This document shows, in pieces, positions 41,741 to 45,399 of a DNA stretch of 49,561 bases. A program made the translations under genes and the position numbers. This stretch comes from Chthoniobacterales bacterium (GTDB lineage: Bacteria; Verrucomicrobiota; Verrucomicrobiia; Chthoniobacterales; Terrimicrobiaceae): the NCBI GenBank assembly GCA_014879575.1, contig JACSRU010000106.1:1-49561 (forward strand). The letters run 5' to 3'. The notes under the pieces were generated by a model that worked only from the letters and a program-made list of their open reading frames with translations, did not search any database and had not been told where the DNA came from. Every line of letters begins with the position of its first letter. Position 1 is the stretch's first letter.

Positions 41741-44026
41741 ATGAAATCCAACCAGCCCCCAACCGAACCCCTCACCGTCCGTCGCCAAAAAGGACAAATC
41801 TACAGCCATGTCCGGAAGAAATGGCTCAACGAAACCCCGGAGGAAGCTGTCCGGCAGGAATACCTCTGCCTGCTGGTGAATGAATACGGCTTCTCCCTGG
41901 GACAGATCGACGAGGAGGTCAGCCTGCCCGGCGACCGGGGAAACAAGAACGCCCGCGCGGATTTCGTCATCTGGCGCACCGTGGAGGAGCGCAAGGCGGG
42001 CAGGACCGCCCTCATCGTCGTGGAGTGCAAGGCCGACAACGTCGCCATCGACCAGAAGACCTACCAGCAGGGCGCGAACTACGCGAACAACGAGCGCGCC
42101 AGGTTCTTCGTCGCCCACAACCGCCGCAGCACCAAGTTCTTCAAGGTCGATCTGGAAAAGCGCGCCCCGAACTACAGCGAGGTGAAGGACATCCCGCACG
42201 CCAGCGACAGCGACAAGCAAATCGAGGCCCTGCTCGCCCAATTGAAGCCCTTCGAGGGCAAGGAGTTCGCCGACCTGCTGCACCAGTGCCACAACGTCAT
42301 CCGCAACAACGAGCACCTCGACCCCGCCGCCGCCTTCGACGAGATCGCCAAGATCCTCTTCATCAAGGTCTGGGTCGAGCGCCGCCTGAAGGAACGCCGC
42401 GAGCGCAAGAACCTCTTCACCGTGGATTTCCTCCGCAGCCAGATCGGCAAGAACCCCATCCAGTCCCTTTTCGACGAAACCAAGGAAGCCTACCAAGCCG
42501 ACAAAATCTTTGAGAAAGACGAGCGCATCAACCTCAGCGCCGCCACCGTCGAGGCCATCGTGCAAAAGCTGGAAAGCTACAACCTCTCAGAGACCAGCGA
42601 GGACGTGAAGGGCATCGCTTTCGAACGCTTCCTAGGCAGCACCTTCCGTGGCAATATGGGTCAATTCTTCACCCCGCGCCCCGTGGTGGATTTCATCGTG
42701 CAGATGCTCGATCCGCAGGAGGACGAGATCATCTGCGACCCCGCCAGCGGCTCCGGCGGCTTCCTCATCCGCTGCTTTCAAATCCTCCGCGAGCGCATCG
42801 CCGCCGACGTGGACGCGCAATACCGCGCCTTCTGCGCCGAGACCGACAAATCGCGCCTGCCCGAGGCCGAGAAGGCGAAACGCAAACGCGCGAAATACGA
42901 TGAGTTGCAAACCGAACTCGACCCCTTCTCCGATCCCGACGTTTCCAGCCGGAAGAAACTCCAGTCCCGCATCTGGACGCTCTCCAACCTCCGCATTTAC
43001 GGCACCGATGCCAACGACCGCATGGCCCGCACCAGCAAGATGAACATGATCATGCACGGCGACGGCCACGGCGGCGTGCATCATCACAACGGCCTGCTCA
43101 ACGTGAACGGCATCTTCGAGGGGCGCTTCCAGGTCATCGCCACCAATCCGCCCTTCGGCGCCGTGGTGCAGGCGGGAAACAAAATCCTGCGCGGCGACCA
43201 CGTGGTGGATGGCGCGGCCCGCGCCCGCTACCGGGGCGAATACGGCCAGCTCTACGATGACGCCATCGCCCGCGTGGAAGCCGCCGAGGGCAAGCCCATC
43301 CTCTCCCTCTTCAAGCTCCCGCTCAAAGGCCAGGACGCCGACGGCGCGGGTGAGGCCCGGCTGGGCAAGATCAGCATGAAGACCGAGCTGGTCTTCATCG
43401 AACGCTGCCTCGATCTCCTCGCCCCCGGCGGGCGTCTCGGCATCGTCCTCCCGGAAGGCATCTTCAACAATCCCTCGCTGCAATACGTGCGCGAGTTCAC
43501 CGAGGACCGCGCCTTTCTCCGTGCCGTCGTCAGCCTGCCCCAGGAAACCTTCGTCAGCAGCGGGGCCAGCGTGAAGTGCTCCGTCCTCTTCCTGCAGAAG
43601 TTCACGGAAAAAGATCAGGAGGACTTCGACCGCACGCGGAGCGATGCCACCGGGGAAATCACCCGCCAGCACCAGCCCGAGGTGGACGAAACCCACGCCC
43701 GGCTCGACGAGGCCGCCGTCGCGGCCAAGGCCGCCAAAGACAAGGACCGCCTCGCCGAGCTGCGCAAGGAGCGCAAGGACTTCGACCGCCGCATGGCCGC
43801 CACTATCGCCGCCGAAAGCCGCGCCTTGCTCAAGCAGCGCTTCGACTACCCCGTCTTCCTCTACGAGGCGGAAAAAGTCGGCATCTCCGCCACCGGCGAG
43901 CCGGACCAGAACGAACTCTTCCCCAACGACCGCCTCCCCGCCGGCGTGGAAAAATCCTGCCTCGAACTCTACCGTGAGTTCCAGCAAGACCCCGCGCCTT
44001 TTTTCGTCCACGGCCCGGCGGCGTGA
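41741..44026 (+). CDS. Restriction nuclease-methyltransferase fusion (BcgI-like RM subunit)
   Basis: A 761-residue fusion. The N-terminal 180 residues are a PD-(D/E)XK nuclease domain of the HSDR_N type: D74 in ARADFVIW, then E95-C96-K97 in VVECKADN. A helical segment follows. The N6-adenine methyltransferase core has the HsdM-type FFTPRPVVDFIVQML, motif I DPASGSGGFL at 333-342 and catalytic motif IV NPPF at 469-472. The C-terminal third is a charged coiled coil. No helicase motifs are present, and no HsdR gene is nearby, so cleavage would come from this subunit, as in BcgI-type systems. The ATG at 41741 is chosen over an upstream TTG. Third codon positions are almost all G or C, unlike the flanks, suggesting transfer. 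Confidence 0.85.
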   Translation: MKSNQPPTEPLTVRRQKGQIYSHVRKKWLNETPEEAVRQEYLCLLVNEYGFSLGQIDEEVSLPGDRGNKNARADFVIWRTVEERKAGRTALIVVECKADNVAIDQKTYQQGANYANNERARFFVAHNRRSTKFFKVDLEKRAPNYSEVKDIPHASDSDKQIEALLAQLKPFEGKEFADLLHQCHNVIRNNEHLDPAAAFDEIAKILFIKVWVERRLKERRERKNLFTVDFLRSQIGKNPIQSLFDETKEAYQADKIFEKDERINLSAATVEAIVQKLESYNLSETSEDVKGIAFERFLGSTFRGNMGQFFTPRPVVDFIVQMLDPQEDEIICDPASGSGGFLIRCFQILRERIAADVDAQYRAFCAETDKSRLPEAEKAKRKRAKYDELQTELDPFSDPDVSSRKKLQSRIWTLSNLRIYGTDANDRMARTSKMNMIMHGDGHGGVHHHNGLLNVNGIFEGRFQVIATNPPFGAVVQAGNKILRGDHVVDGAARARYRGEYGQLYDDAIARVEAAEGKPILSLFKLPLKGQDADGAGEARLGKISMKTELVFIERCLDLLAPGGRLGIVLPEGIFNNPSLQYVREFTEDRAFLRAVVSLPQETFVSSGASVKCSVLFLQKFTEKDQEDFDRTRSDATGEITRQHQPEVDETHARLDEAAVAAKAAKDKDRLAELRKERKDFDRRMAATIAAESRALLKQRFDYPVFLYEAEKVGISATGEPDQNELFPNDRLPAGVEKSCLELYREFQQDPAPFFVHGPAA

Positions 44027-45399
44027 GTCATCACGCCGGCCGGGCCTTTGCTGTCCAATGGTCGCAAGCCAGCCGCTGGAGTCCCGGCAGCTTCCGCGAG
44101 GTGGCTTGGAGCTGGCCGCCCGAGACCATCCAACCGCTTTCCACCGTCCTGCGCCGTCGCATCGAGTGCGTAGGCCGCGCGGAACACCCGCTCGACTCGC
44201 TCGTGTTCGGCTCGCTCCACTTCGGCGGCGAACTTTCCCGGCGCGACATGAGCAGCAAGCAGGAGGTCAAAGGAAAGCTCTTCTTCGCCCATGCCGACGA
44301 CGTGGTTTACTCGAAGATCGACGCGCGGAACGGTGCCATCGGCATCGTCCCGCATGAAATGCCGCTGGTGGTCTTCAGCTCCGAATATCCCATCTATGAA
44401 GTGGACCGGGAACGGGCGCTGCCGGAATACGTGAAGCTGCTGTTCCGCATGGCAAGCTTTCGCCAGCGCATCAACAGCCTGATCAGCGGCGCAAGCGGCA
44501 GGAAACGGGTTGAGCCAAGCACGCTGGAAGGTATTGAAGTTCCTTTGCCCCCGCTCGCCACCCAGCAAGCCATCGTGGACCACTGGCAGGCCGCGCAGCG
44601 GAAAAACGCCGCTGCCCTTCGCACGGCGGACGAGCAGGAGGCGGAGACGGAATCAGCTTTTCTCAGGGACCTTGGCCTCAAGAGCTCTGTATCAATACTA
44701 ACGCATCGAGGTTTCGCGCTTCATTGGTCGGACGTTGAGAGGTGGGGCGTGGATGGGCTACGCAAAACGATTGGCGGAATTGATCCGAACAAAAGTAAAT
44801 TCGCCGCTGAATCATTGAGCACGGTGCTGGAGTTCGCCCAGTATGGAACCAGTGACAAAGCCAACGAGGCGCAAAAGGGCGTTCCCGTGCTGCGAATAAG
44901 CAACATCAAGGACGGCAGGATATCCTGGGAGAATCTCAAGCATATCGAACTGCCTGGGAGGACAGAAGCGTCCCTCAAGCTCGTGGATGGTGACATTCTC
45001 ATCATCCGAACGAGCGGTAGCCGCGACTTAGTTGGAACTTGCGGAGTTTATCGCGGGGATCGCCCGTCTGTCTTCGCGTCATATCTGATCCGTCTGCGCA
45101 TCGATCAGAGCAAAGCGGTGCCTGAATTTATCAGCTATTTCATCAACTCACCTGCGGGCCGCCAGCAGGTGGATGCGGTGAGCCGTCAGATCATGCAAAA
45201 CAATATTAACAGCGAAGAAATCAAAGGCTTGCGCATCCCCCTCCCGCCGCTCGCCATCCAGCAACACCTCGTCGCCGAAGTGAGCGCCGCGCGCGAAACC
45301 ATCGCCGCCGTGCGCGCCGCCGCCGCGCAGCGCGCCGCCGATACCGCCCGCGAAGTGGAGGAAATGATCCTCGGCCACCGCCCGGCTTCGAAATCGTGA
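44023..45399 (+). CDS. Restriction-modification specificity subunit (HsdS-like)
   Basis: A 458-residue S subunit with two target-recognition domains (about 1-185 and 225-415), each ending in a conserved helical spacer. The repeats at their ends match: EGIEVPLPPLATQQAIV and KGLRIPLPPLAIQQHLV. The GTG start overlaps the stop of the nuclease-methyltransferase gene (GTGA), so the two are coupled. The S subunit directs the partner to a bipartite DNA sequence. The first domain is GC-rich like its partner gene. The second (about 44690-45230) reads visibly lower in GC, which suggests domain swapping by recombination. The recognition site cannot be deduced. Confidence 0.88.
   Translation: MSHHAGRAFAVQWSQASRWSPGSFREVAWSWPPETIQPLSTVLRRRIECVGRAEHPLDSLVFGSLHFGGELSRRDMSSKQEVKGKLFFAHADDVVYSKIDARNGAIGIVPHEMPLVVFSSEYPIYEVDRERALPEYVKLLFRMASFRQRINSLISGASGRKRVEPSTLEGIEVPLPPLATQQAIVDHWQAAQRKNAAALRTADEQEAETESAFLRDLGLKSSVSILTHRGFALHWSDVERWGVDGLRKTIGGIDPNKSKFAAESLSTVLEFAQYGTSDKANEAQKGVPVLRISNIKDGRISWENLKHIELPGRTEASLKLVDGDILIIRTSGSRDLVGTCGVYRGDRPSVFASYLIRLRIDQSKAVPEFISYFINSPAGRQQVDAVSRQIMQNNINSEEIKGLRIPLPPLAIQQHLVAEVSAARETIAAVRAAAAQRAADTAREVEEMILGHRPASKS

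What the first reader, a model, noticed from the sequence alone, without database searches (positions are those of the whole stretch)
41741..45399. Two-gene BcgI-like restriction-modification system without a helicase
One polypeptide joins a PD-(D/E)XK nuclease domain (D74, E95-C96-K97) to an HsdM-type methyltransferase (DPASGSGG, NPPF), followed by a coupled S subunit with two recognition domains. There is no HsdR translocase here. This is the organisation of type IIB enzymes such as BcgI, which cut on both sides of a bipartite site, but the nuclease domain looks like the HSDR_N domain of type I enzymes. It may be a separate lineage that recruited the HsdR nuclease without its motor.
Basis: partly seen in the sequence, partly recalled or inferred. 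Interest (0 to 1): 0.6.

Follow-up and report, generated by a model that had tools for sequence, protein, structure and literature searches.

The report
BsaXI-like two-subunit Type IIB restriction enzyme
Two overlapping genes encode a restriction enzyme in which one protein both cuts and methylates DNA and a second protein reads the target sequence; this is a known kind of enzyme, already described for BsaXI, and is ordinary apart from belonging to a large, little-studied branch.

Summary
ORF 41741-44026 encodes one 761-aa protein: a PD-(D/E)XK nuclease (HSDR_N_2), a helical connector and an N6-adenine methyltransferase. A two-TRD S subunit (44023-45399) follows with a 4-nt overlap. No HsdR motor was found in the window, in the flanks of about 80 related loci, or in five genomes that carry relatives. 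The one HsdR in this genome sits with its own M and S genes.

The novelty claim fails. The nuclease of the solved Type IIB enzyme BsaXI itself matches Pfam HSDR_N_2 above the curated cut-off. BsaXI is the best solved relative by profile (7e-67) and by Foldseek (5.7e-23). Its four catalytic residues E73/D90/E105/K107 align with E59/D74/E95/K97 here, kept in 86 of 87 relatives. A methyltransferase-only tree puts this family, BsaXI and MADS Mad2 in one clade apart from HsdM, so a single old fusion is the simplest history.

Best reading: a Type IIB-like (RM)2S enzyme of the BsaXI kind. It is a new member of a known kind, in a widespread family that PADLOC labels 'Type I methyltransferase'. Cutting itself is inferred. 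Side finding: two MADS Mad2 proteins carry the same domain with the active site lost.

The parts
41741..44026 (+). RM subunit, 761 aa: nuclease (about residues 20-150), helical connector (about 170-300), gamma-class N6-adenine methyltransferase (about 300-620), long helical hairpin (623-700), C-terminal tail
   Evidence: ORF; HSDR_N_2 3.5e-22 and N6_Mtase 8.8e-34; AlphaFold2 model mean pLDDT 83.5; best Foldseek match BsaXI RM 5.7e-23
41915..42031 (+). nuclease active site E59, D74, E95, K97 (residues 59-97 of the RM protein)
   Evidence: E59 kept in 86 of 87 relatives, D74/E95/K97 in 87 of 87; align with BsaXI E73/D90/E105/K107, catalytic by mutagenesis in PMC11997821
42737..42763 (+). methyltransferase motif I, DPASGSGGF (residues 333-341)
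   Evidence: D333, G337, G339, G340, F341 invariant in 45 sequences
43145..43156 (+). methyltransferase motif IV, NPPF (residues 469-472)
   Evidence: invariant in 45 sequences
44023..44026 (+). 4-nt overlap GTGA, start of S inside the stop of RM (suggests translational coupling)
   Evidence: sequence; same overlap in 46 of 69 related loci
44023..45399 (+). S (specificity) subunit, 458 aa: TRD1, long helix 178-216, TRD2, long helix 410-450
   Evidence: two Methylase_S matches; AlphaFold2 model pLDDT 88.7; best folds PacII S and BsaXI S, both 1.2e-19

Best explanation
This is a Type IIB-like restriction-modification enzyme of the BsaXI kind. Two RM subunits and one S subunit would form an (RM)2S complex. 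The two TRDs of S read the two halves of a bipartite site. Each RM subunit methylates one adenine (m6A) in its half-site. When the site is unmethylated, the N-terminal PD-(D/E)XK domains cut the DNA at a fixed short distance on both sides, with Mg2+ and without ATP or translocation. Shown here: domain order, intact catalytic residues, the two-TRD S fold (predicted), gene coupling, and no conserved HsdR. Inferred from BsaXI and BcgI: stoichiometry, m6A product, cutting on both sides, cofactors. Unknown: the recognition sequence.
For: BsaXI is the top solved relative by profile (7e-67, next 1.4e-32), top by Foldseek (5.7e-23), and among the 50 VIA rows BsaXI and DrdV are the enzymes aligned from the nuclease through the methyltransferase. 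The BsaXI nuclease matches HSDR_N_2. The catalytic tetrad is kept in 86 of 87 relatives and aligns with BsaXI residues shown catalytic by mutation. S model: TRD-helix-TRD-helix, BsaXI S among the top matches. RM-S adjacency in 69 loci, 4-nt overlap in 46. No HsdR-like gene found in flanks. Five of 49 genomes bearing relatives have no SWI2/SNF2 match, one of them a 4.0-Mb genome with a 3.95-Mb scaffold. PMC3874165 defines the RM+S Type IIB layout.
Against: No cleavage or methylation data. Sequence identity to BsaXI is low (19% in the Foldseek alignment), and BsaXI's knob and paddle were not both recognised: a long helical hairpin takes the knob position. Engineered fusions of an HsdR nuclease to HsdM methylated but did not cut (PMC6158711), so the layout alone does not prove cutting. 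Two relatives (MADS Mad2) have lost the active site, so the nuclease can be dispensable.
Confidence: 0.8

Rival explanations
1. Methyltransferase only: the nuclease domain is regulatory or vestigial and the pair methylates for an epigenetic or MADS-like role.
For: Two Mad2 proteins of MADS have the same layout with ExK lost; NCBIfam's best model for the window protein is MAD2, 6.1e-86 but 289 bits against a cut-off of 720.
Against: Tetrad kept in 86 of 87 relatives. The flanking genes are metabolic (galactokinase, acyl-CoA synthetase-like, lactate permease), not a MADS cluster.
Confidence: 0.1
2. M and S of a Type I system that works with an unlinked HsdR.
For: PADLOC names the family 'Type I methyltransferase'; this genome has one HsdR, on C132; most genomes with relatives have some SWI2/SNF2 protein.
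Against: The C132 HsdR has its own M and S neighbours. Five genomes with relatives have no SWI2/SNF2 match. A second nuclease would be redundant; the MTase lies outside the sampled HsdM groups.
Confidence: 0.04
3. An active enzyme with a different cutting rule (one side only, or cutting gated by partners such as the RadC or DGQHR proteins that flank many relatives).
For: RadC lies upstream in 16 and a DGQHR protein downstream in 21 of 82 loci, in some loci overlapping the neighbouring gene.
Against: 53 of 82 loci have neither, though some are cut by contig ends; this locus has neither. Two-TRD S subunits go with two-sided cutting in known RM+S enzymes.
Confidence: 0.06

Closest known systems
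BsaXI (Type IIB, RM + S; PMC11997821, PDB 8w0p)
   Same: Domain order nuclease-helical connector-MTase, separate two-TRD S, aligned catalytic tetrad, HSDR_N_2 nuclease, best profile and Foldseek match
   Different: Low identity; 761 aa against 916; a long helical hairpin at the knob position; BsaXI's C-terminal paddle region lies beyond the aligned part
BcgI-like Type IIB enzymes (BcgI, Hpy99XXII TCAN6TRG; PMC3874165, PMC3936762)
   Same: Two genes, RM fusion plus S, no motor
   Different: PMC11997821 reports that BcgI's nuclease does not superpose on the others; a BcgI-sized family (PDLC03602, identity with BcgI not tested) lacks HSDR_N_2 in the members scanned and branches apart
Mad2 and Mad5 of MADS
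   Same: HSDR_N_2 plus N6_Mtase fusion and an S-like partner; same MTase clade
   Different: Nuclease ExK lost in the two Mad2 proteins checked; MADS has further genes, not seen here
Type I HsdM and HsdS
   Same: HsdM-like MTase fold, HsdS-like S subunit
   Different: Own nuclease on M, no HsdR partner found; MTase outside the sampled HsdM groups

Membership tests
Type IIB (RM + S) | Nuclease and gamma-class MTase in one chain | tested here: met
   Pfam and AlphaFold2 model
Type IIB (RM + S) | Complete PD-(D/E)XK active site | tested here: met
   E59/D74/E95/K97, kept in 86 of 87 relatives
Type IIB (RM + S) | Separate S subunit with two TRDs | tested here: met
   Two Methylase_S matches and predicted fold
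Type IIB (RM + S) | No ATP-driven motor subunit | tested here: met
   None linked; the genome's HsdR has its own M and S; none in five genomes with relatives
Type IIB (RM + S) | Cuts both sides of a bipartite site | not testable with these tools
   Needs biochemistry
Type IIB (RM + S) | m6A on both strands of the site | not testable with these tools
   Needs a methylome
BsaXI subfamily | Knob and paddle insertions | tested here: inconclusive
   A hairpin at residues 623-700 sits where the knob lies; no separate paddle segment aligned
Type I R-M | HsdR with HSDR_N and SWI2/SNF2 motor in the system | tested here: not met
MADS (Mad2) | Score above the NCBIfam MAD2 cut-off | tested here: not met
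   289 bits against 720
PADLOC PDLC03018 (labelled MTase_I) | Full-length profile match | tested here: met
   3e-219 over residues 27-742 of the 775-aa form

The most novel reading that the evidence does not exclude
The family is a large unrecognised Type IIB branch filed as Type I methyltransferases, whose activity in many hosts is tuned by operon partners (a RadC protein upstream, a DGQHR/DndB-like protein downstream), and from whose wider clade MADS took its methyltransferase after losing the nuclease.
Probability: 0.2. Interest if true: 0.5.

Novelty: new member of a known kind. Interest (0 to 1): 0.25.

Why it matters
It suggests that hundreds of proteins labelled 'N-6 DNA methylase' or 'Type I methyltransferase' are probably complete cutting enzymes, a source of new Type IIB specificities, and that genome surveys of Type I systems may count them wrongly. 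The Mad2 comparison gives a testable history for the MADS methyltransferase.

Tried and rejected
Separate recruitment of an HsdR nuclease: rejected because the BsaXI nuclease is in the same Pfam family and the MTase tree unites the fusions; but the order inside that clade is weak (80/51 just below the starred node), BsaXI is a long branch and was entered from aligned pieces only. Unlinked HsdR: searched, not supported. A conserved third gene as an essential part: RadC and DGQHR are frequent but absent from most loci, this one included. No published account of the RadC-RM-S-DGQHR operon was found; the library lacks most subscription papers. The MADS paper itself was not held, so MADS statements rest on NCBIfam and PADLOC models. 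Pfam scans of large flank genes list only the 25 commonest families, so a single HsdR there could be hidden; the motif scan also found none. BcgI could not be placed because its sequence was not at hand.

Full report
Observation. The RM ORF (41741-44026, 761 aa; alternative start 41699 gives 775 aa) and the S ORF (44023-45399, 458 aa) are intact and overlap by GTGA. Pfam finds HSDR_N_2 (3.5e-22) and N6_Mtase (8.8e-34) in RM and Methylase_S (1.3e-12) in S; a genome search finds two separate Methylase_S matches in S.

Nuclease. In 45 aligned relatives E59, D74, E95 and K97 are invariant; across 87 relatives with the region, E59 is kept in 86 and the other three in all (one gene is counted twice, as L003 and L046). 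A profile of the family aligns them with BsaXI E73, D90, E105 and K107, which the BsaXI paper identifies as catalytic by mutagenesis and conserved in Type IIB enzymes (PMC11997821). The AlphaFold2 model has the expected helix and strand order with these residues in or next to the strands 56-61, 72-77 and 92-96. The BsaXI nuclease fragment itself matches HSDR_N_2 at 39.8 bits against a cut-off of 25. So the HSDR_N label does not separate this enzyme from Type IIB. A review likewise states that Type IIG cleavage domains belong mainly to the PD-(D/E)XK family found in Type I R subunits (PMC3874165).

Closest relative. By profile search of the PDB the best hit is BsaXI RM (7e-67), the next a Type I M subunit (1.4e-32). 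Foldseek ranks three BsaXI chains first (5.7e-23). VIA-align gives similar Z for several MTase folds, but BsaXI and DrdV are the rows that span nuclease and MTase. The S model shows TRD, long helix, TRD, long helix, with PacII S and BsaXI S as best matches.

History. A tree of the MTase region alone groups this family, BsaXI, Mad2 and Mad2-like fusions (99/98; one other long-branched protein, L011, without a nuclease match, joins them), apart from the sampled HsdM groups and from PDLC03602. The nuclease HMM finds the domain in all the fusion members of that clade (BsaXI by Pfam) and not in the HsdM rows. One old fusion is the simplest reading; BsaXI's exact place is uncertain because its branch is long.

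No motor. Large flank genes of about 85 related loci show no HsdR family among the commonest Pfam matches, none match the genome's HsdR by BLAST, and none carry both helicase motifs. The genome's HsdR on C132 has its own HsdM and HsdS; contig C106 holds a truncated Type I M-S pair. Of 49 genomes carrying relatives, five have no SWI2/SNF2 match at all, including one of 4.0 Mb with a 3.95-Mb scaffold.

Distribution. Relatives occur across many phyla and on plasmids, and the S gene is adjacent in 69 loci. In three congeners the galactokinase block upstream is conserved but no RM-S pair follows in the stretch read, and one congener has an 80% identical RM gene elsewhere, beside an Mrr-family gene. 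The pair is therefore accessory and probably moved horizontally (inference).

Neighbours. RadC precedes RM in 16 and a DGQHR (DndB-like) gene follows S in 21 of 82 loci. Their role is unknown, and this locus has neither.

Counter-evidence weighed. Artificial HsdR-nuclease/HsdM fusions methylate but do not cut (PMC6158711), and Mad2 shows that the nuclease can be lost. Against this stands the near-complete conservation of the tetrad in this family.

Verdict. A Type IIB-like RM+S enzyme of the BsaXI kind; new member of a known kind. Cutting, two-sidedness and m6A are inferred, not shown.

Noticed in passing
L149:1171-3462, L150:1462-3462: Two Mad2 proteins above the NCBIfam cut-off keep the HSDR_N_2 domain but have lost the ExK (LCR, VCR) and the first E: MADS may use a Type IIB-like enzyme with a dead nuclease. 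Only two were checked.
   Followed up: partly
L092:7247-13149 and similar loci: Recurrent operon RadC - RM - S - DGQHR/DndB-like gene; 8 of 82 loci have both partners.
   Followed up: partly
window 43607-43840 (RM residues 623-700): Long charged helical hairpin at the position of BsaXI's knob; its length varies widely in relatives.
   Followed up: no
L043 and L128 (G000:C132): A separate Type I system in this genome (M, S, R) with further genes between S and R, in a stretch that looks rich in defence genes.
   Followed up: no
L042:7719-11444: Plasmid pAQ6 of Picosynechococcus carries a 1241-aa relative that may join RM and S in one chain.
   Followed up: no
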